DNA of 64,000 bases from an uncultured Pseudodesulfovibrio sp. (lineage in GTDB: Bacteria; Desulfobacterota; Desulfovibrionia; Desulfovibrionales; Desulfovibrionaceae), in the NCBI RefSeq assembly GCF_963677845.1, contig NZ_OY782498.1:10001-74000 (forward strand). Reading direction: 5' to 3'. The translations under genes were made by a program, and so were the position numbers. Under the pieces are notes generated by a model. It was given only the letters and a program-made list of their open reading frames with translations, did not search any database and was not told the origin of the DNA. Shown in pieces: positions 21,986 through 29,502 of this stretch; the first letter of the stretch is position 1; each line of letters starts with the position of its first letter.

Positions 21986-22014
21986 TTGACACCTATACCC
22001 CGTATGGGTATACG
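21986..22014 (+). promoter_or_regulatory. Operon promoter with embedded CsoR/CstR-type operator
   Basis: TTGACA (21986-21991), a 17-nt spacer and TATACG (22009-22014) form a good sigma-70 promoter. Overlapping the spacer and -10 is the dyad TATACCCCGTATGGGTATA (21994-22012), with perfect 7-bp arms TATACCC / GGGTATA. C/G-tract dyads flanked by AT are what CsoR-family repressors bind. It lies 115 nt before the cytochrome c ATG. A CsoR-family gene is at the other end of the module. Confidence 0.72.
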
Positions 22015-22128: not shown

Positions 22129-22452
22129 ATGAACCGCACAATCGTTCTGGCTGTTGCAACGGCCCTGATTACTATTTTTGCAGTTTCCATGGCCTTTGCC
22201 ATGGGTGGCGGCAATGCTCGCAAGGGTAAGTTCCTTTACCGTAAAAACTGTCGTACCTGCCATAATGGTGCTCAAGCTCCTGATTTGAGTCCGGCTGATC
22301 GTACTCAGGCTGAATGGACTGCCACGTTCAAGGACACAAGCAAGATCAAGTGTTCCGGCGACTGGTCGGCTTCTGAAAAAGATCTGAACGACATTTTCAC
22401 GTATCTGCATGATTTTGCCAAGGACTCTCCGTCCCCGGCTAAGTGTAGCTAG
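22129..22452 (+). CDS. Small monohaem cytochrome c
   Basis: A 107-aa exported cytochrome with a signal peptide (residues 1-24, ending AFA) and a single haem-binding CRTCH (about residues 40-44). A Met-containing region is not obvious, though MGGG lies near the mature N-terminus. A second Cys pair (Cys about 83 and the penultimate Cys) might form a disulfide. The start ATG 22129 has GGAGG. It is the first gene of the Phs-type operon and may pass electrons to or from the periplasmic reductase (inference). A 10-bp hairpin follows it, which could set the ratio between this and the downstream genes. Confidence 0.85.
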   Translation: MNRTIVLAVATALITIFAVSMAFAMGGGNARKGKFLYRKNCRTCHNGAQAPDLSPADRTQAEWTATFKDTSKIKCSGDWSASEKDLNDIFTYLHDFAKDSPSPAKCS

Positions 22453-22515: not shown

Positions 22516-22546
22516 CGACACCTCGTCCGAGGGTGGCGAGGTGTCG
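22516..22546 (+). promoter_or_regulatory. Intercistronic hairpin between cytochrome c and phsA-like gene
   Basis: CGACACCTCG / CGAGGTGTCG, 10 perfect bp around an 11-nt loop, with a run of five T before it and none after it. It is better explained as a processing or partial-termination structure than as a full forward terminator. Confidence 0.5.
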
Positions 22547-22597
22547 GGGAAAGGTTGTGACACCAACGGTAGAATGGTGGATATCCGGAGGTATTTA

Positions 22598-24793
22598 GTG
22601 TCGAATTCCAAGCAGACAATGTCTCGTCGTGATTTCTTCAAGGCTACTGGCCTTGTGGCGGCAGGGGCGGTAGGCGGTCCGGCTTTACTGGGTGGTCTGA
22701 AAAAGGCGCAGGCGGCTTCCGTTGCGGCCCCGGCTTGGGACTCCAAGTTTTCGGCCTGCGACATGTGTTTCAATAAATGTGGCCTTATCGCTCGCGTTGA
22801 AAATGGGGTCATCAAGAAGCTCGATCCCAATCCCAAATTTCTCAAGTCGCGGGGCATGTTATGTGCCCGCGGTAACGCCGGTCTTGATCAAGTCTATGAT
22901 CCAGATCGTCTCAAGCATCCCTTGCTCAGAAAGGGAGCACGCGGCGAAGGCAAGTGGCAGCGCATCCCGTGGGATGAAGCCATTGATATGGCCGCGCAGA
23001 AAATGGAAGAAGTTCGCAAGAAGTATACCCCCTGCGGTCATCTTTTCTCTGCCGGAACTGATCTGCATTCTCAGTTCGTGGGCCGGTTTGCCGAAGTCTA
23101 TGGTTCGTTTAATGTCACGTCCCATGAATCACTGTGTCTGGTTTCGGGCAACAGGGCGTTTCTTGATACTTACGGAGAAGTGCCGTTCCCGGACGTGCTC
23201 AACTCCAAGTATATCATTATGGCAGGTGCCAACCGCTTCGAAGCTTTGGTCACCCCGGATTCCATTGATTTGATGACCGCCATCCGTGAGAACGGGTGCA
23301 AGTTGGTGACGCTTGATCCGCGTTATACCAAGACTGCGGCTCTTTCAGATGAATGGTATCCCATCAGGCCCGGTTCGGACATGGCGTTTATGCTCGCTCT
23401 GGCACATGTCATCATCGGTGAAAAACTTTACGACCCGCAGTGGATCGAAGAGAAGACATACGGTCTCGAACAACTGGCCGAACATGTCAAACAGTATACC
23501 CCCGGTTTTGCCGCAGAAGAGTGTGGCATTCCGGCAGAAGATATAACCCGTATGGCCCGTGAGCTGGCAGCGGCCGCTCCGGCAGCCATGATTTATCCCG
23601 GTCGTCGGACTTCGGATTATGAAGATTCCACCCAGATTCGTCGTAGTTTTGCCATTGTGAATGGTTTGCTCGGCAACTGGGACCGTCCCGGTGGCCTGTT
23701 GGCCGCTCGGCAGGTTGGCCTCAAGGGAGTGTCGTATGACGCCCCATGGTATGATGAGAATCAGGACGATCGTATCGACGCCCACAAGGTGCCGATGATG
23801 TTTGAGCACGAAGGTTCATTTCTGGTCACGCGTGATTCCGTACTGGCCGAGGACCCATATCCCATCAAGGGGTGGTTCGTGTACAAGACCAACCCTATGG
23901 GCACGGCTCCCAATCGGAAGAAGACCATCGAGATGATGAACAAGATGGACTTTGTCACCGTGGTGGATATCGCCATGTCCGACACCGCTTGGTACGCCGA
24001 TCTGGTTTTGCCATCTCAGAGTTATCTGGAGCGGATTGATCCGTGTGCCGGTTTGCAGGGTTCTGTGGCTTGTGCCTGTGTGGTCAAACGCGACCCACTC
24101 ATCAAGTCATTGTACGAATCCCGTTCACTCTTCGACATTATGAAGGGTATTGCCGGCAAGATGGACCTCGGTGAATATTTTGATTTCACTATTGAGGAAT
24201 TTCGCAAGAAGCAGACTCGTGAGATCCCGGAGGCCCTTGAGGTCATGGATCGCGACGGCGTCTACTACAATCCGTCCAAGGTGTACGGCATTTATGAAGG
24301 TCGGATTTACAAGACCTTGTCCAAGAAGGTGGAACTGTACAACCAGCGGTACGAACAGATGGGGCTTGATCCCATGCCCATTTATACCCCGCCCACTAAG
24401 GTTCCCAAAAATCAATTCCGTCTGGTGCTTGGCCGGGATGCCGCAGTCACCCAGACTTCGACCATTAACAACAAGTTGCTCAATGAGTTGAATCCCACCA
24501 ATACGTTGTGGCTCAACATCGAAGCAGCTGGGAAGCTCGGCATTGCTGACGGTGATCTGGTCGAAGTGTCCAGCCCCGTTGGCAGGCAGGAACTCAAGGC
24601 CGAAGTGACGGATAGAATTAGAAAAGACACGGTGTACATGCTTTCGGGCTACAACACTTTGTCCACCATGCAGACCCTGTCCCATGGCAACGGCGCGTCC
24701 ATCAATGAACTGTTGGATGACGATTATGACACGATCACAGGGAATGCTTCCATGCATACGACCTTTGTCACCGTAACAAGGAAGGTGGCGTAA
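22598..24793 (+). CDS. Thiosulfate/polysulfide reductase-like molybdopterin catalytic subunit (PhsA/PsrA type)
   Basis: A 731-aa molybdopterin oxidoreductase. A twin-arginine signal (S-R-R-D-F-F-K, residues 9-15, then a hydrophobic stretch ending A-Q-A) sends it to the periplasm. The first [4Fe-4S] site is Cys54-x2-Cys57-x3-Cys61-x27-Cys89. SHESLC (about residue 195) supplies a plausible Cys ligand to Mo, as in PsrA/PhsA and Nap-like enzymes. The C-terminal molydopterin-dinucleotide-binding domain includes RLVLGRDAAVTQTSTINN. The start is GTG 22598, with GGAGG just upstream; an earlier GTG at 22541 is inside the preceding hairpin. Together with the next two genes it forms a membrane-anchored reductase. 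Thiosulfate, polysulfide or sulfur as substrate fits the rhodanese neighbours, but related arsenate or tetrathionate enzymes cannot be excluded. Confidence 0.87.
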   Translation: MSNSKQTMSRRDFFKATGLVAAGAVGGPALLGGLKKAQAASVAAPAWDSKFSACDMCFNKCGLIARVENGVIKKLDPNPKFLKSRGMLCARGNAGLDQVYDPDRLKHPLLRKGARGEGKWQRIPWDEAIDMAAQKMEEVRKKYTPCGHLFSAGTDLHSQFVGRFAEVYGSFNVTSHESLCLVSGNRAFLDTYGEVPFPDVLNSKYIIMAGANRFEALVTPDSIDLMTAIRENGCKLVTLDPRYTKTAALSDEWYPIRPGSDMAFMLALAHVIIGEKLYDPQWIEEKTYGLEQLAEHVKQYTPGFAAEECGIPAEDITRMARELAAAAPAAMIYPGRRTSDYEDSTQIRRSFAIVNGLLGNWDRPGGLLAARQVGLKGVSYDAPWYDENQDDRIDAHKVPMMFEHEGSFLVTRDSVLAEDPYPIKGWFVYKTNPMGTAPNRKKTIEMMNKMDFVTVVDIAMSDTAWYADLVLPSQSYLERIDPCAGLQGSVACACVVKRDPLIKSLYESRSLFDIMKGIAGKMDLGEYFDFTIEEFRKKQTREIPEALEVMDRDGVYYNPSKVYGIYEGRIYKTLSKKVELYNQRYEQMGLDPMPIYTPPTKVPKNQFRLVLGRDAAVTQTSTINNKLLNELNPTNTLWLNIEAAGKLGIADGDLVEVSSPVGRQELKAEVTDRIRKDTVYMLSGYNTLSTMQTLSHGNGASINELLDDDYDTITGNASMHTTFVTVTRKVA

Positions 24794-25533
24794 TGGCACA
24801 GCAACTTGCGATGGTTATTGATGCGGCCAAGTGCATCGACTGCAAAGCGTGTGTGGCTGCCTGCAAGGTAGCCAACCAAGTCCCTGAAGGGCAGTGGCGC
24901 AATTGGATTAAACCGACCAACGATACGCCGGTTCCCGGCAAAAAAAGCGATGCCGCCAGATTCCAGCCCGGCGCATGCATGCACTGCGAAAACCCCACTT
25001 GTGTGGATGCCTGTCCCACTGGTGCGACATTTAAGGATACGGAAACCGGCGAAGTCGTTATTAACGAAGGACTGTGTATTGGATGCGGTAACTGTATTCC
25101 TGCCTGTCCCTATGACGCCCGTTTCCGTAACGAGGTCAAGCGCAAGGCGGATAAGTGTAATTACTGTCCCGAGCGCAGGGCCGCGGGTGTTCCTCCAGCA
25201 TGTGTGGACACTTGTCCCACCAAGGCTCGGGTCTTTGGCGATATCAATGATCCCGACAGCGAAGCCGGTCGTCTGTATCTTAAGAATAAGGACCGTCTGA
25301 CTCGTGTGGCCGCCAAGACCGACACCAAACCGAATATGTTTTATCTCGGTAACCCCGGTCCGGGCGAATGGGGCCGAGAGGCCATCATTCCTGCATCCAT
25401 GGTCGCCATGAAGCAGTCCGCACCATTGGTGAAGGGTATCGTGGCCCTGTCCGGTCTGGGCGTGCTTGCCATGCTTGGCCGTCAACTGTTTGTCGGCTCC
25501 GATTCCGACCACAAGGAGGATTCCGATGCCTAA
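24793..25533 (+). CDS. Electron-transfer subunit with four [4Fe-4S] clusters (PhsB/PsrB type)
   Basis: A 246-aa ferredoxin-like subunit with sixteen-Cys architecture in four groups: CIDCKACVAAC, CMHCENPTCVDACP, CIGCGNCIPACP, and CNYCPER...CVDTCP. This is the pattern of DmsB/PsrB/PhsB subunits that wire the Mo site to a membrane quinol site. A C-terminal hydrophobic helix (about 213-233) could anchor it, which is not typical of all homologues. The ATG overlaps the preceding stop (TAATG), so translation is coupled. The next gene's ATG overlaps its end by 8 nt. Confidence 0.92.
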   Translation: MAQQLAMVIDAAKCIDCKACVAACKVANQVPEGQWRNWIKPTNDTPVPGKKSDAARFQPGACMHCENPTCVDACPTGATFKDTETGEVVINEGLCIGCGNCIPACPYDARFRNEVKRKADKCNYCPERRAAGVPPACVDTCPTKARVFGDINDPDSEAGRLYLKNKDRLTRVAAKTDTKPNMFYLGNPGPGEWGREAIIPASMVAMKQSAPLVKGIVALSGLGVLAMLGRQLFVGSDSDHKEDSDA

Positions 25534-26245
25534 CACCATGTTCAAACGACACGATAAAACCGATATATTCATTCATTGGTTCAACGCGGTCTGCTGGCTG
25601 CTGCTTCTGCTGACAGGAGTGGGGCTGATCCAGCACCCGGCCATTGATCCGTTTGGTTCCGGCTATCCCGAGGCTATGCGTGCCATGGTGGGCGGCGGGG
25701 CAAATCTGCTGGTCATCCATGAAATTATCGGTCTGCTTTGGCTGGCCGGGTTCGTTTTCTATCTTCTCGTCAACTTTAAGGGTGCCCGGTTTTTTCTGGC
25801 AGAAGTATTCGCCGTCAGTCCGGCGCGTGACATGGCGTGGATGATCAAGAAAATGGTGCTCATGACGCTGGGCCCCAAGGCCCTCAAGATGATGGGCATG
25901 GACCCGGAATTACCGGATCAGGGATATTACAACATGGGCCAGAAGGCGTTTGCTCAGGCCTCTGTTGTGGGAGGCATTGTTATCGCTGTGACCGGCGTGA
26001 TCATGTTCATGTCCGACCGGACTTTCGGGGCCGAGTCCACAGGCATGGTCGGTTGGGCCGTGACCCTGCATTTTATTGCCGTGGGGCTGGTTTTTGCCGG
26101 ATTGCTGGTTCACATCTATATGGCCGCCATTTCGCCGGAAGAACGTCCCGGCTTCAAGTCCATGTTCACCGGCGTGGTTCCCGGCAACTATGCCAAACAT
26201 CACCACCGTCTGTGGTGGGAAAAGGTCAAAACCGAGGGTGAATAG
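25526..26245 (+). CDS. Cytochrome b membrane subunit (PhsC/FdnI type)
   Basis: A 239-aa integral membrane protein with four main helices (about 20-38, 68-92, 140-160, 175-198) and His residues for haem b, including IFIHWFN, VIHEIIGL, LHFIAVG and LLVHIYM. This resembles the gamma subunit of formate dehydrogenase and PhsC-type quinol-oxidising cytochromes b. It completes a three-subunit periplasmic-facing reductase. The start ATG 25526 is set by AAGGAGGA 7 nt upstream, inside the end of the previous gene. The last residues (HHHRLWWEKVK) are cytosolic and basic. Confidence 0.9.
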   Translation: MPNTMFKRHDKTDIFIHWFNAVCWLLLLLTGVGLIQHPAIDPFGSGYPEAMRAMVGGGANLLVIHEIIGLLWLAGFVFYLLVNFKGARFFLAEVFAVSPARDMAWMIKKMVLMTLGPKALKMMGMDPELPDQGYYNMGQKAFAQASVVGGIVIAVTGVIMFMSDRTFGAESTGMVGWAVTLHFIAVGLVFAGLLVHIYMAAISPEERPGFKSMFTGVVPGNYAKHHHRLWWEKVKTEGE

Positions 26246-26326: not shown

Positions 26327-27424
26327 ATGTATAGGAAATTGTTTGCCGCAGTCATGATGCTGGTGTTCGCTCTGGTGACGACAACCGGTGTTGTAATGGC
26401 TGATGAAGCCAAGAAGCCGAAGTTCAAGGAATTCCACTCCATCGTGGATTACAAGTTCGTGGCCAAGTACGCCAAAATGCCCAAGCCCAAGGGCGCGATG
26501 ATCGTTGATTCCAGACCATACAAACCGAAGTATGTCGATGGATACATTCCGACTGCTGTGTCCATTCCGACCAGCCAGTTCGACAAGATGGTGGATAAGT
26601 TGCCCGCCAACAAGGACGATCTTCTTATTTTCTATTGTGGTGGCTTTCATTGCGGACTCTCCCATAAAGCGGCCTGGAAGGCAGAAAAGCTTGGCTATAC
26701 CAACGTCCATGTCTACGCCGCGGGTTTTCCGGATTATAAGAAGCACGCGTTGTACTACTCCATCGGTCTGGAAAATCTCCACGGCAAGATGGCCAACGGC
26801 GATAAATATGCATTGATCGACGCCCGTCCGTACCAGAAGTATCTGGCTGGCGCGATTCCGTCCGCTATCGGCATTCCTGAAAAGGACTTTGCCGACAAGC
26901 GCGGTATGTTGCCAATTGATAAAGCTGAAGTCACACTGGTTTACTATTGCGGCGGCTACAAATGTGCCCTGTCGCACAAGTCCGCAATCAAGGCCCGTTA
27001 CCTTGGCTACAAGAAAGTTGTGGTTGCTGAAGCCGGTTATCCCGGTTGGAAGGAAATGTTCGGTGGTGCCGATGTGGCCGTCAAGGCCGGTGAAGCTGAA
27101 GGTGCAGTCGATGCTGAATGGTTCCTGAAGACCATCAAGGAAAACCCGGATTCCATTCTGCTGATCGATGTGCGTGATCCTGAGGAATACGCAGCCGGTC
27201 ACTTCCCCTCCGCCATCAACATGCCTGTTGATATGGTTGAGAAAAAGGCCAAGGAAATCCCGACAGACAAGCCTATCGTATTCTCCTGTGCCACAGGCGC
27301 ACGAGCAGGCGAAGCTTATTACCTGTTTATGGACATGGTACCTGATGCCAAGAATGTCTTCTATCTGGAAGCCACCAATGACTTTGGTGAAGACAATTCT
27401 TACGAGGTTCATCCAAATAAATAG
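26327..27424 (+). CDS. Exported triple-rhodanese sulfurtransferase
   Basis: A 365-aa protein with a signal peptide (residues 1-25, ending MADEAKK) and three rhodanese domains. Domain 1 has active-site loop YCGGFHC (Cys104 and Cys109), domain 2 YCGGYKC (Cys208 and Cys213), and domain 3 SCATGARAG (Cys321). The double-Cys loops in domains 1 and 2 are unlike the classical CxxGxR loop, while domain 3 is near-classical. Periplasmic rhodaneses carry sulfane sulfur as persulfide, consistent with feeding or draining the adjacent reductase. The start ATG 26327 has AGGAAGGGAG. It is co-directional with PhsABC, 81 nt downstream, and followed by a small hairpin before the next rhodanese gene. Confidence 0.9.
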   Translation: MYRKLFAAVMMLVFALVTTTGVVMADEAKKPKFKEFHSIVDYKFVAKYAKMPKPKGAMIVDSRPYKPKYVDGYIPTAVSIPTSQFDKMVDKLPANKDDLLIFYCGGFHCGLSHKAAWKAEKLGYTNVHVYAAGFPDYKKHALYYSIGLENLHGKMANGDKYALIDARPYQKYLAGAIPSAIGIPEKDFADKRGMLPIDKAEVTLVYYCGGYKCALSHKSAIKARYLGYKKVVVAEAGYPGWKEMFGGADVAVKAGEAEGAVDAEWFLKTIKENPDSILLIDVRDPEEYAAGHFPSAINMPVDMVEKKAKEIPTDKPIVFSCATGARAGEAYYLFMDMVPDAKNVFYLEATNDFGEDNSYEVHPNK

Positions 27425-27488: not shown

Positions 27489-28499
27489 ATGATGATACGG
27501 ATATCTTCCATTGTATATATGCTCCTCGCCTTATGCCTTTTCTGGAGTGCACCCGCCAATGCTGACGAAAACGAAGTTTGGTGGTCCGCTGCACAGGGTG
27601 AAGCCGAACGTGAAGGGTATAAGCTCATCAACACCAGCGGGTTGAAGGCGTTGATTGATTCAGGCGTAAAACCACTTATTATCGATGCGCGAGCTGATTA
27701 TGAATTTGTCGCCGGGCATATCCTCGGTTCCATCAATATGGAATTTGATCTTGGCGACCGGATGGATTTGCCAGAAGCCAAGCGGACGGCATTCAAGGAT
27801 TTGGTCGGATACGATCAAAAACGTCTGTTGGTGGTGTATTGTCGAAGTTTCAGGTGACTGCGCAGTGGCATTGCGGCGCGCTGGGCAGCGCGTCTCGGAT
27901 ACACTGATGTTTATCGATATGCAGCGGGATTTCATGACTGGAAAGAAGCATACCCCGAACTCGTGGATGGTGTGCAGGAAGAAAAGCATATTCTGGCCGT
28001 GGGCGATACGTTCCCGGCATGTCGGGTGGCGGTGTTGAATGGCGATGCGGATCGCGAGTATTTGAATTTACCGGAAGGGACCAAATGGTTGCAACTTTCC
28101 GAGTTGTCCGCCCGTTTTGTGCTGATTCAACTGTACAATACCATGTGCAACGATTGCGTGAGGGAAACCAAGTTGCTTTCGCGGTTTTTCAAGGATGTGG
28201 AGAATGATCCTGTGTTGGCCGGACAACTCAAGATCATTGGGTTGGGTGTGTATGATTCGAATCATGCCGTTGTTCGTTTCAAGAAACATTATGATGTGGC
28301 CTACCCGTTGTTTTCGGATAAAAGCGGGCAGATCTTCGAATGTCTCGGACAGGCCGAATTGCCGCTGGCATATCTGGTTCGGGCCGAGGGTGATGGTAAC
28401 TGGACCATTGAATTGATCCGGCGTGGCTATTTTGAACCGGACACCAGATTTTTGGATGTATTGCGGTCAGCCGTTATTCGAACCGAAGAACTGGACTAG
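27489..28499 (+). CDS. Rhodanese-redoxin fusion with in-frame TGA, probable selenoprotein
   Basis: Read through one TGA (27855-27857), this gives a 336-aa exported protein: signal peptide (1-25, ending SAPANA), rhodanese domain (about 45-145) and AhpC/TSA-redoxin-like thioredoxin fold (about 165-330) with Cys220-N-D-Cys223. The TGA is codon 123 in Y-C-R-S-F-R-(U)-L-R-S-G-I-A-A. In the two paralogous domains just upstream the loops are Y-C-G-G-F-H-C and Y-C-G-G-Y-K-C, so TGA falls exactly on the second Cys. Homology continues in the same frame (LGYTDVYRYAAGFHDWKEAYP). A SECIS-like hairpin follows. Without readthrough the rhodanese is cut off mid-loop. A sequencing error or recent nonsense mutation is the alternative. 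The stop overlaps the convergent torD stop. Confidence 0.78.
27858..27894 (+). promoter_or_regulatory. Candidate bacterial SECIS element
   Basis: Downstream of the TGA, GGCGCGCT (27875-27882) and AGCGCGTC (27887-27894) form an 8-bp stem, including one G-U pair, with apical loop GGGC. The loop starts 25 nt after the TGA and begins with GG, fitting the loose bacterial rules (loop about 16-37 nt from UGA, G in the first two loop positions). It lies within coding sequence, as bacterial SECIS elements do. Confidence 0.6.
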
Positions 28500-29110
28500 A
28501 TCTTTGAAACAGTTTCCAAGGTTGTTACTGTGAGGTCTGCGACACAGGTGAATATAGGGTGTGGGGCGGCCTTGTTCAGTGCGTCCCGGAAACGGCGTAC
28601 CCATGGAAGCATGATCGATTCTGCGAATTCGGTGCCTTGAGCGGCTTGTTCCTTTTGTCCGAACCACCCTTCGGAGAGTAAGTAGAAGAGGAATTCGAGT
28701 TCAATGGTCAAGTGGTCGGCTGGTTCGTTGGAGTCTAACGACATTTCAAGTCCGGCTTCCTGAAGACGACTTTGCATGTCCAAGGCGCTCTGGCCCATGG
28801 TTCGGGGTGTGGTGTCGAGATGGCAGGATTCATACAGCGGGGCGGGAACTCCTCCAGAGCCGGCAATGAACAGGCGGACATATTCGGTCTCAAGAATTGA
28901 GATGTCTTCATCCGAAAGATTTGCTGACAATTGGTTCAAGCATTGAGCCGGAGCGAGGAAGGTGTCGGGGTTTTTCTGGACACTGGCAAGGAGTTCAGGC
29001 ACTCCAACCTTGGCGAGATTGGCCCATTCTTCTGCATTAGGGCCACGAAATACGGTGACACACAGTTCCAATACATTAAGTAAATGAAGTTTTGATTGAG
29101 ATATGGACAT
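28496..29110 (-). CDS. TorD/DmsD-family molybdoenzyme chaperone
   Basis: A 204-aa all-helical protein of the TorD/DmsD redox-enzyme maturation family. The ETEYVRLFIAGSGGVPAPLYESCHLD segment (about 80-105) contains the family's E-Y-x-R-L-F and P-x-x-S/E-S motif, and the later ADHLTIELEFLFYLL is typical. Such chaperones bind the Tat signal of a molybdoenzyme until cofactor insertion is complete, here most likely the PhsA-like subunit. The start ATG 29110 has AAGGATCC upstream; the extra N-terminal 22 codons to 29176 lack support and would cross the palindromic operator. It is convergent with the selenoprotein-like gene and divergent from the CsoR-family gene. Confidence 0.88.
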   Translation of the reverse strand: MSISQSKLHLLNVLELCVTVFRGPNAEEWANLAKVGVPELLASVQKNPDTFLAPAQCLNQLSANLSDEDISILETEYVRLFIAGSGGVPAPLYESCHLDTTPRTMGQSALDMQSRLQEAGLEMSLDSNEPADHLTIELEFLFYLLSEGWFGQKEQAAQGTEFAESIMLPWVRRFRDALNKAAPHPIFTCVADLTVTTLETVSKI

Positions 29111-29138: not shown

Positions 29139-29158
29139 TACCGTACTACAGTACGGTA
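29139..29158. promoter_or_regulatory. Perfect palindrome between torD-like and csoR/cstR-like genes
   Basis: TACCGTACT-ac-AGTACGGTA, 9-bp perfect arms with a 2-nt centre, located in the 98-bp divergent intergenic region. Its outer TACC/GGTA resembles the ATACC/GGTAT of the 21994-22012 dyad, so autoregulation by the CsoR-family protein is possible. The arm content differs, so a different regulator is also possible. Confidence 0.6.
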
Positions 29159-29208: not shown

Positions 29209-29502
29209 ATGGAATCAGCAGCAACAGTTGAAGAACAGAAAATCAAAAAAAACGTTTTGTCTCGTATGAAGCGGATCGAAGGGCAGGTGCGCGGCATTCA
29301 AGGAATGATTGAGGCAGGCAAGGAATGTCAGGATATTTTGGTTCAGGTCCGGGCTGTTCGGTCTGCCTTGCAATCCGCCAACAAGTTGATTTTGAAACGG
29401 TATATGTTGCGGTGCTATGCAGATGCCATGGAAGGTGAAACGGATGAAAAGGAAGCTTTGGATAAGCTGATTAAGGTTTTGACCGGTTTTATTGAAGGAT
29501 AA
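29209..29502 (+). CDS. CsoR-family repressor with CstR-like Cys pattern
   Basis: A 97-aa all-helical protein of the CsoR/RcnR/CstR (DUF156) family, with signature MKRIEGQVRGIQGMIE (residues 20-35) and VRAVRSALQSANKLIL. The sensing positions are Cys40, Tyr65 and Cys69. Copper-sensing CsoR has Cys, His, Cys at this spacing, so loss of His together with retention of both Cys is the pattern known for persulfide-sensing CstR. This suits its place beside rhodaneses and a sulfur-compound reductase. The start ATG 29209 has AAGGAG. It is divergent from torD across a palindrome and is followed by an EF-hand gene. Confidence 0.88.
   Translation: MESAATVEEQKIKKNVLSRMKRIEGQVRGIQGMIEAGKECQDILVQVRAVRSALQSANKLILKRYMLRCYADAMEGETDEKEALDKLIKVLTGFIEG

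What the first reader, a model, noticed from the sequence alone, without database searches (positions are those of the whole stretch)
27489..28499. Probable selenocysteine in a rhodanese-redoxin fusion inside a sulfur-reduction operon
Seen: TGA at 27855-27857 lies in frame between the N-terminal rhodanese half and a continuous downstream frame of rhodanese C-terminus plus a redoxin domain. In paralogous domains of the upstream gene the active loops are Y-C-G-G-F-H-C and Y-C-G-G-Y-K-C; here the loop is Y-C-R-S-F-R-(TGA), so TGA replaces the second Cys exactly and similarity resumes at once (LGYTDVYRYAAGF vs LGYTNVHVYAAGF). Known: Desulfovibrio-type bacteria use Sec in hydrogenases and formate dehydrogenases, and Sec usually replaces redox Cys. 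Inference: a Sec/Cys pair in a periplasmic persulfide carrier fused to a CxxC redoxin.
Basis: partly seen in the sequence, partly recalled or inferred. Interest (0 to 1): 0.93.

Follow-up and report, generated by a model that had tools for sequence, protein, structure and literature searches.

The report
Selenium-containing rhodanese-redoxin fusion protein
An apparent stop codon in the middle of a sulfur-handling gene of a sulfate-reducing bacterium is almost certainly read as the rare amino acid selenocysteine, placing selenium next to the reactive sulfur of a probably exported enzyme that sits in a conserved sulfur-respiration-like gene cluster.

Summary
In detail: TGA 27855-27857 lies in frame inside one 336-codon gene (rhodanese + ResA-like redoxin) and replaces the second Cys of the rhodanese loop (YC-RSFR-U). 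The genome has tRNA-Sec, selA, selB and selD. Of 36 genomes of the genus, 24 have the gene with TGA, 5 without a stop, 7 lack it. The site is Sec or Cys in 50 of 50 homologous rows; a tree needs 7 Sec/Cys exchanges. Synonymous change drops around the TGA and a SECIS-like hairpin follows, though total folding energy did not beat synonymous shuffles. The operon (cytochrome c, Phs-like molybdoenzyme, Fe-S, cytochrome b561, triple rhodanese) is conserved, often with a CsoR-family repressor and operator. Best reading, inferred: Cys118 takes sulfane sulfur, Sec123 releases sulfide, the redoxin re-reduces the pair. Sec at this rhodanese position is broader than the finding (74 domains) and probably overlaps published forms: a new variant of a known kind.

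The parts
27489..28499 (+). Sec-containing rhodanese-redoxin gene, 336 aa with TGA read as Sec; signal-peptide-like N-terminus (by eye), rhodanese 52-154, ResA/TlpA-like redoxin about 171-335 with C220-x-x-C223
27855..27857 (+). in-frame TGA, Sec123, +5 from the catalytic-type Cys118
27875..27894 (+). SECIS-like hairpin GGCGCGCT[GGGC]AGCGCGTC, 25 nt between the TGA and the loop
   Evidence: overlaps the stretch of lowest synonymous change
26327..27424 (+). triple-rhodanese protein (ORF from 26261; likely start 26327) with YCGGFHC and YCGGYKC loops and a third loop SCATGAR; signal-peptide-like N-terminus (by eye)
25526..26245 (+). cytochrome b561 / formate-dehydrogenase gamma-like membrane subunit (ORF from 25466; likely start 25526)
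24793..25533 (+). 4Fe-4S electron-transfer subunit
22541..24793 (+). molybdopterin oxidoreductase with a Tat-like SRRDFFK motif (by eye), closest to PhsA but below the PhsA cut-off (524 vs 694 bits); exact start uncertain
22129..22452 (+). small cytochrome c with one CxxCH, head of the operon
21996..22010 (.). CsoR-type operator-like palindrome TACCCCGTATGGGTA upstream of the operon
28496..29110 (-). TorD/DmsD-like molybdoenzyme chaperone (ORF to 29176; likely start 29110), convergent with the operon
29140..29157 (.). perfect palindrome ACCGTACT-AC-AGTACGGT between the chaperone and repressor genes
29209..29502 (+). CsoR/DUF156-family repressor with Cys-Tyr-Cys in place of the copper sensors' Cys-His-Cys

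Best explanation
The gene encodes one probably exported selenoprotein. UGA-123 is decoded as Sec by the cell's SelA/B/C/D system, helped by a hairpin just downstream. Supported by sequence evidence: one gene, Sec at +5 of the rhodanese active loop, fused to a ResA-like thioredoxin domain, last in a conserved operon with a Phs-like molybdoenzyme and a triple rhodanese. Inferred mechanism: Cys118 takes a sulfane sulfur atom from thiosulfate, polysulfide or a partner rhodanese as Cys-S-SH. Sec123, five residues on, attacks the sulfur bound to Cys118 and releases HS-, leaving a Cys-S-Se-Sec bond. The CxxC redoxin domain (or another periplasmic thiol reductant fed by a DsbD/CcdA-type transporter) reduces that bond for the next turn. 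The protein would thus be a self-regenerating periplasmic sulfane-sulfur reductase, or clearing partner, of the molybdoenzyme. I put the selenoprotein identity at about 0.95 and the reductive mechanism at about 0.5.
For: Sec machinery in the same genome. TGA in 24 of the 29 genus genomes that carry the gene and in other families, in the same loop wherever I read it. Site Sec or Cys in 50 of 50 rows; 7 exchanges on the tree, at least 6 forced by starred branches. Purifying selection continues after the TGA. Synonymous change is lowest, of 320 windows of 14 codons, in windows covering the TGA and the next 11-13 codons. bSECIS criteria of the 2026 review met at 39 of 47 Sec sites against 7.4% of 12,316 other codon positions in the same genes. 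Hairpin 85.2% paired, covariation 0.170 against 0.133 in shuffles, 1 of 500 shuffles as high. For the mechanism: the redoxin domain matches ResA/CcmG; a related rhodanese (TsoB, UxxxxU) is fused to a DsbD-type electron transporter, so two fusions couple this rhodanese type to thiol reduction; a like scheme (rhodanese persulfide, disulfide formation releasing sulfide, re-reduction) was proposed in print for the multidomain protein Pcar_0429 (passage). In 20 neighbourhoods fetched around the gene the other four operon genes are present in 20. A CsoR-family repressor with both Cys and no His lies beside the operon in 15 of 20.
Against: No Se detection and no enzyme assay. Total folding energy after the TGA is no lower than in synonymous recodings (39 Sec rows, mean z -0.33; 11 Cys rows, mean z -0.31), and 5 of 11 Cys homologues also meet the bSECIS criteria while 8 of 47 Sec sites do not, so part of the hairpin follows from the protein sequence. 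Five of 36 fused homologues lack the CxxC and 6 of 42 lack the redoxin, so an internal electron relay is not essential. AF2 pTM is 0.57, so the domain-domain arrangement is not reliable.
Confidence: 0.75

Rival explanations
1. Same selenoprotein, but it works as a sulfur supplier: it loads sulfane sulfur and hands it to the molybdoenzyme or the triple rhodanese rather than reducing it, as rhodaneses have been proposed to supply sulfur-energy enzymes.
For: Linkage with the molybdoenzyme and triple rhodanese (20 of 20 loci fetched). Rhodanese-only members without redoxin exist in the same operon. A rhodanese as sulfur supplier for sulfur-energy enzymes was seen here only as a cited title.
Against: A pure carrier needs no second Cys/Sec in the loop and no CxxC redoxin (reasoning). 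The site is nothing but Sec or Cys in 50 of 50 rows.
Confidence: 0.3
2. The protein handles selenium itself (selenite or selenide chemistry, or Se delivery), so Sec reflects selenium metabolism rather than sulfur chemistry.
For: Sec site; selenium-substituted rhodanese has been reported (seen only as a cited title).
Against: Operon is Phs-like, with rhodaneses and a CsoR-family regulator. Cys versions occupy the same operon position in 5 of the 20 loci (L080, L081, L093, L094, L096).
Confidence: 0.08
3. TGA is a true stop: the gene is split into a rhodanese fragment and a separately started redoxin (GTG 27963).
For: GTG 27963 opens a 178-aa ORF, and a start-capable codon is there in 21 of 25 orthologues (20 GTG, 1 ATG).
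Against: In 4 of 25 orthologues that codon is ATT, ATC or GTC. The 35 codons between TGA and GTG are as constrained as the rest (pN/pS 0.30). A redoxin started there would lack the signal peptide, and the rhodanese would end inside its domain. Homologues with Cys are continuous.
Confidence: 0.03
4. Sequencing error or recent pseudogene.
For: Would explain a single in-frame stop in one genome.
Against: Same TGA in 23 other genomes of the genus at 62-92% identity, and outside the genus.
Confidence: 0.01

Closest known systems
TsoB, rhodanese/DsbD fusion-like selenoprotein (NCBIfam NF045694; review form 5, UxxxxU)
   Same: Homologous rhodanese domain (8.5e-29 over residues 6-154); Sec at the same +5 position; fused to a thiol-reducing module
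   Different: Window protein has Cys at the first site, no DsbD membrane part, a ResA-like redoxin instead; 100 bits against a cut-off of 805
Rhodanese-like domain-containing selenoprotein form 1 (motif UxxS, review PMC13188914 Table 1)
   Same: Window motif after Sec is U-L-R-S, and 64 of 74 Sec+5 rhodaneses seen here have Ser at Sec+3, which fits UxxS
   Different: I could not see the form 1 sequence, so identity of position is an inference; the table gives only domain PF00581 and motif
ResA / CcmG / TlpA thiol-disulfide oxidoreductases
   Same: C-terminal domain fold and CxxC
   Different: Here fused behind a rhodanese; CxxC lost in 5 of 36 fused homologues
PhsABC thiosulfate reductase
   Same: Molybdoenzyme, Fe-S and cytochrome-b type membrane subunit order (the PhsC comparison is recalled)
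   Different: Below the PhsA equivalog cut-off (524 vs 694 bits); extra cytochrome c and two rhodanese proteins
MOLY cluster (MolyA, MolyB, TorD/DmsD chaperone), proposed sulfur-disproportionation marker of Desulfobacterota (PMC12998232, passages)
   Same: Molybdoenzyme of the same superfamily with a TorD-type chaperone, in related bacteria
   Different: Not compared: I did not test whether the window's enzyme is MolyA; the passages do not name rhodaneses as part of MOLY
CstR persulfide-sensing repressors
   Same: DUF156/CsoR family, two conserved Cys, no His at the copper-ligand position (fingerprint recalled); beside rhodanese genes
   Different: No sensing test; below the cut-offs of the three NCBIfam models it matches (RicR, FrmR, RcnR)

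Membership tests
bacterial selenoprotein | Sec machinery (selA, selB, selC, selD) in the genome | tested here: met
bacterial selenoprotein | in-frame TGA aligned with Cys in homologues, in several organisms | tested here: met
   50 of 50 rows U or C
bacterial selenoprotein | SECIS-like hairpin, loop 16-37 nt after TGA, G in first two loop positions, MFE <= -7.5 | tested here: met
   window hairpin meets it at -12.4; 39 of 47 Sec sites against 7.4% background, 5 of 11 Cys sites; not separable from synonymous recodings by total energy
bacterial selenoprotein | selenium physically present in the protein | not testable with these tools
   needs mass spectrometry or 75Se labelling
TsoB (NF045694) | score over curated cut-off, rhodanese plus DsbD part | tested here: not met
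   100.1 vs 805 bits, rhodanese part only
TsoB (NF045694) | Sec at both loop positions (UxxxxU) | tested here: not met
   C-x4-U in the window
rhodanese form 1 (UxxS) | PF00581 domain with Sec in a UxxS motif | tested here: inconclusive
   PF00581 met, ULRS fits, but the published sequence was not seen
PhsA thiosulfate reductase | over PRK15488 equivalog cut-off | tested here: not met
   524.3 vs 694 bits
MOLY cluster | orthology to published MolyA/MolyB | not tested
   only passages of the paper seen
ResA/TlpA-like redoxin | thioredoxin fold with CxxC | tested here: met
   Foldseek 1su9 TMt 0.79, C220/C223
CstR persulfide sensor | DUF156 family, two Cys kept and copper-ligand His absent (fingerprint recalled) | tested here: met
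   both Cys in 15 of 15 loci, His absent in 15 of 15
CstR persulfide sensor | persulfide-dependent release of DNA | not testable with these tools
   needs binding assay

The most novel reading that the evidence does not exclude
Rhodaneses with a Cys-x4-Sec loop form a large, mostly unrecognised class of exported sulfane-sulfur reductases in Desulfobacterota. Sec acts as the resolving residue that turns a sulfur-transfer enzyme into a sulfide-releasing one, and the window protein is its self-contained form (own redoxin domain) serving a persulfide-regulated molybdoenzyme respiration operon.
Probability: 0.4. Interest if true: 0.78.

Novelty: new variant of a known kind. Interest (0 to 1): 0.6.

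Why it matters
It gives a concrete, testable case of selenium at the heart of sulfur transfer: a rhodanese loop in which Sec sits at the position of the second Cys. The position looks general in the set examined (81 TGA codons in 74 of 226 distinct rhodanese domains: 74 at +5, 7 at the first site of UxxxxU, none elsewhere). Cys and Sec versions of the same protein exist in one genus, so the effect of selenium can be compared directly. It also means that automatic annotation may split this gene (not checked in any record), and it links a Sec protein to a Phs-like operon and a CsoR-family regulator.

Tried and rejected
Blind folding test: energy of the 42 nt after the Sec/Cys codon against 400 synonymous recodings gave no separation (mean z -0.33 for 39 Sec rows, -0.31 for 11 Cys rows, Mann-Whitney p 0.61; only 4 of 39 Sec rows at p <= 0.05). 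I therefore rest the RNA element on synonymous constraint, pair counts and published geometry, and call it SECIS-like. In one search the hairpin slid by +2 also scored high (covariation 0.149; 9 double-change cells against 5 unslid); I read this as the shifted hairpin seen in a few genomes (loop at +22), which is an inference.

selB as a discriminator between Sec and Cys genomes: rejected. 48 of 50 genomes have it over the cut-off, the seven Cys ones included; the two misses (G249, G243) are 82%-complete drafts, and G249 carries the TGA gene.

Phylum search with a CGFVKC-type rhodanese: 30 of 395 genomes matched, and none of the 31 matches holds a stop.

Alignment used the wrong strand for two loci; it was discarded and redone with right coordinates. 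Script one search failed to map the catalytic Cys for 42 TGA codons; it was replaced.

Rows dropped before counts: L023 (near-copy of L022), L065 and L066 (TsoB), L074 and L095 (same genes as L086 and L076) and L102-L107 from the tree; two TsoB sequences and identical stretches from the 32-sequence pair count; L096 from the operator and cytochrome c counts because the fetched stretch ends at the start of the molybdoenzyme gene.

Full report
What is there. The 1011 bases 27489-28499 form one frame of 336 codons plus a stop, interrupted only by TGA at 27855-27857. Before the TGA stand a signal-peptide-like N-terminus (by eye) and most of a rhodanese domain; after it come the rest of the rhodanese and a redoxin domain. 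AlphaFold2 with 42 aligned homologues gave mean pLDDT 89.0 but pTM 0.57, so each domain is credible and their mutual placement is not. Foldseek matches the C-terminal domain to ResA and CcmG and the N-terminal one to a rhodanese-like protein, 6mxv; a sequence search of the PDB also gives ResA.

The TGA sits at +5 from the catalytic-type Cys: Y-C118-R-S-F-R-U123-L-R-S. The gene immediately upstream has Cys at both places in its first two rhodanese domains (YCGGFHC, YCGGYKC).

Sec machinery. In the window's own genome (one contig, 3,701,887 bases) there is a tRNA-Sec at 81.8 bits over a gathering score of 47, selB at 398 bits over 242, selA at 615 over 268, and selD at 342 over 125, with a TGA inside the match. 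The genus is probably Pseudodesulfovibrio: two of three named contigs with orthologues at 69-92% identity bear that name, the third is titled Desulfovibrionaceae; the window's own record is not named.

Conservation. Of 36 genomes of the genus (the window's included), 24 carry the gene with one TGA (the 23 others at 62-92% identity), 5 carry it without a stop, and 7 have only weak matches. In all 24 the TGA is in the loop YCRSFR(U). In 50 aligned rows, which include rhodanese-only forms, two TsoB proteins and four single-domain rhodaneses, the site is U in 39 and C in 11 and never anything else (tally). Outside the genus, full-length TGA forms occur in 9 genomes of the family, all read at the site, and in 6 of another family of the order, of which I read three. 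In a family outside the class I read five: two Sec, three Cys. A maximum-likelihood tree of 58 rows (44 Sec, 14 Cys, of which 4 are the outgroup), with the site masked, needs 7 Sec/Cys changes; starred branches force at least 6, and 500 label shuffles never came as low. The program warned of long branches and of half-empty rhodanese-only rows, so single placements are unsure. Repeated exchange between Sec and Cys at one column is the classic signature of a selenoprotein.

Translation past the TGA. For 25 genus orthologues (300 pairs) pN/pS is 0.41 before the TGA, 0.30 in the 35 codons between the TGA and the first downstream GTG, and 0.31 after; pS is 0.55-0.64, near saturation, so the ratios are rough. 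For the close pair L021/L022 they are 0.21, 0.13 and 0.03. The GTG is start-capable in 21 of 25 and is ATT, ATC or GTC in 4, so a conserved internal start is unlikely.

RNA element. Among 24 TGA orthologues, synonymous change relative to codon-usage expectation is 0.48 in the 13 scorable codons after the TGA against 0.84 elsewhere (Mann-Whitney p 1.6e-4); the seven lowest of 320 windows of 14 codons all overlap this place. A hairpin, GGCGCGCT[GGGC]AGCGCGTC, has 25 nt between the TGA and its loop. It meets the bSECIS model quoted from the 2026 review (passages); 39 of 47 Sec sites do, against 7.4% of 12,316 other codon positions in the same genes and 5 of 11 Cys sites. In 32 aligned sequences 85.2% of pair cells are paired and the covariation score is 0.170 against 0.133 in shuffles (1 of 500 as high), with a partial second signal at a slide of +2. 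Against this, the total folding energy is no lower than in synonymous recodings, and the fold of the window stretch has z -1.07 against dinucleotide shuffles. I therefore call it SECIS-like: constraint at the RNA level is shown, SelB binding is not.

Operon. The gene follows a molybdopterin oxidoreductase (best NCBIfam model PhsA, 524 bits, below its cut-off of 694), a 4Fe-4S subunit, a cytochrome b561-type subunit and the triple rhodanese. I fetched 20 neighbourhoods around the gene, chosen from four families of the order (15 from the window's own family); the other four genes are present in 20 of 20 and in the same order in 19 (in L090 the triple-rhodanese match lies further downstream). Five of the 20 carry the Cys form. 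A small CxxCH cytochrome c precedes the molybdoenzyme in 18 of 19 evaluable loci. A TorD/DmsD-like chaperone lies opposite.

Regulation. The gene at 29209-29502 is a CsoR/DUF156-family repressor, present beside the operon in 15 of the 20 loci. Both sensor Cys are kept in 15 of 15, and the copper-ligand His of CsoR is Tyr in 14 and Ala in 1. That copper sensors have His there and persulfide sensors lack it is recalled knowledge; that CstR senses reactive sulfur and often represses rhodaneses was read in passages of PMC10318464. A palindrome TACCC-N5-GGGTA lies upstream of the cytochrome c in 14 of 14 evaluable loci with the repressor and 0 of 5 without it (Fisher 8.6e-5); after mononucleotide shuffling, 0.012 of the 19 stretches hold one on average. 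The Fisher value overstates the case: the five without repressor are all of the loci from the other three families, so relatedness could explain the split. CsoR-family sites with runs of G/C and TAC/GTA ends are described in the same passages.

How it most likely works. Supported by sequence: one protein, Sec at +5, ResA-like partner domain, conserved operon. Inferred: Cys118 accepts sulfane sulfur; Sec123 attacks the sulfur bound to Cys118 and sets free HS-; the selenenylsulfide is re-reduced by the CxxC of the redoxin. Two fusions support a reductive role: this one, and TsoB, where a related rhodanese with UxxxxU is fused to a DsbD-type transporter (two loci over the NF045694 cut-off, 977 and 985 against 805). 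A comparable scheme (persulfide on a rhodanese domain, disulfide formation releasing sulfide, re-reduction by electrons from NADH) was proposed in print for the multidomain cytoplasmic protein Pcar_0429 (passage of PMC3543383). The own genome has two DsbD-type membrane proteins elsewhere that could feed electrons in. Against strict intramolecular relay: CxxC is absent in 5 of 36 fused homologues, and 6 of 42 aligned homologues have no redoxin domain.

Compared with what is known. Selenoprotein rhodaneses are known. The 2026 review (PMC13188914; section 7 parts 1 and 2, which hold Table 1, read; otherwise passages) lists five rhodanese forms with motifs UxxS, UxxG, CxU, UxxG and UxxxxU; no row gives a CxxxxU motif or a rhodanese-redoxin fusion. 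NCBIfam of June 2026 has no model over cut-off for this protein. However, the window motif ULRS itself fits UxxS. Of 226 distinct rhodanese domains in the loci I had fetched, 74 hold in-frame TGA, 81 codons in all: 74 at +5, 7 at the first position of UxxxxU, none elsewhere; Ser follows at Sec+3 in 64 of 74. Many of those loci are homologues of the window gene, and 20 were picked because a TGA lay inside the match, so the share of domains with TGA is not a frequency; the position was not selected for in those 20. So Sec at this position is a broad theme, probably already covered in part by form 1, whose sequence I could not see. I did not find in print the rhodanese-redoxin selenoprotein, its operon, or the regulator; the searches were and 101 of an open-licence library, and the paper that named TsoB is not held. 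Of other papers I saw passages only: PMC1794560, PMC9312934, PMC1088965, PMC2398784, PMC12013277, PMC8318568, PMC5029168, PMC12998232 and PMC9751629, PMC5877670, PMC6148476, PMC1914089 and PMC3543383. One of them, PMC5029168, lists 25 sequences of a 'sulfurtransferase homologous to a rhodanese-like protein' without a motif in the passage seen, and PMC8318568 mentions a Sec rhodanese-like domain in a marine deltaproteobacterium; either could include relatives of this protein.

Verdict. Novelty: a new variant (new fusion and new context) of a known kind, Sec rhodaneses. Interest 0.6: moderate surprise, but a clean, testable system with natural Cys and Sec versions in one genus.

Noticed in passing
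L033 (G244), TGA at 614; same contig as L071: The first rhodanese domain of the triple-rhodanese protein has YCGGFT(TGA) where orthologues have Cys: an apparent second, independent Sec at the same loop position, in one draft genome.
   Followed up: partly
L065, L066, also L125, L161, L168, L188, L189: Double-TGA rhodanese loops of the type YUAGLTU; L065 and L066 score over the TsoB cut-off, the others are by motif only.
   Followed up: partly
L175 (G651 C211): One frame with two consecutive rhodanese domains, each with YCGGxTU: two TGA codons in one frame, both at +5.
   Followed up: no
L173, L178: Two frames in each locus with a Sec rhodanese loop (YCMG.DU and HCLS.RU types), possibly paired genes.
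   Followed up: no
window 29140-29157: Perfect palindrome ACCGTACT-AC-AGTACGGT between chaperone and CsoR-family genes; exact matches in 7 of 189 loci held, all of them the window's gene or its nearest relatives; unlike the TACCC-N5-GGGTA site.
   Followed up: partly
L054, L055, L056, L058, L059 (one genus, g34): Redoxin domain fused to the Sec rhodanese has lost its CxxC (RLES or HAEN) while the TGA is kept.
   Followed up: no
G000:C1:3423424-3424353: The selD match of this genome holds a TGA, i.e. SelD is itself probably a selenoprotein.
   Followed up: no
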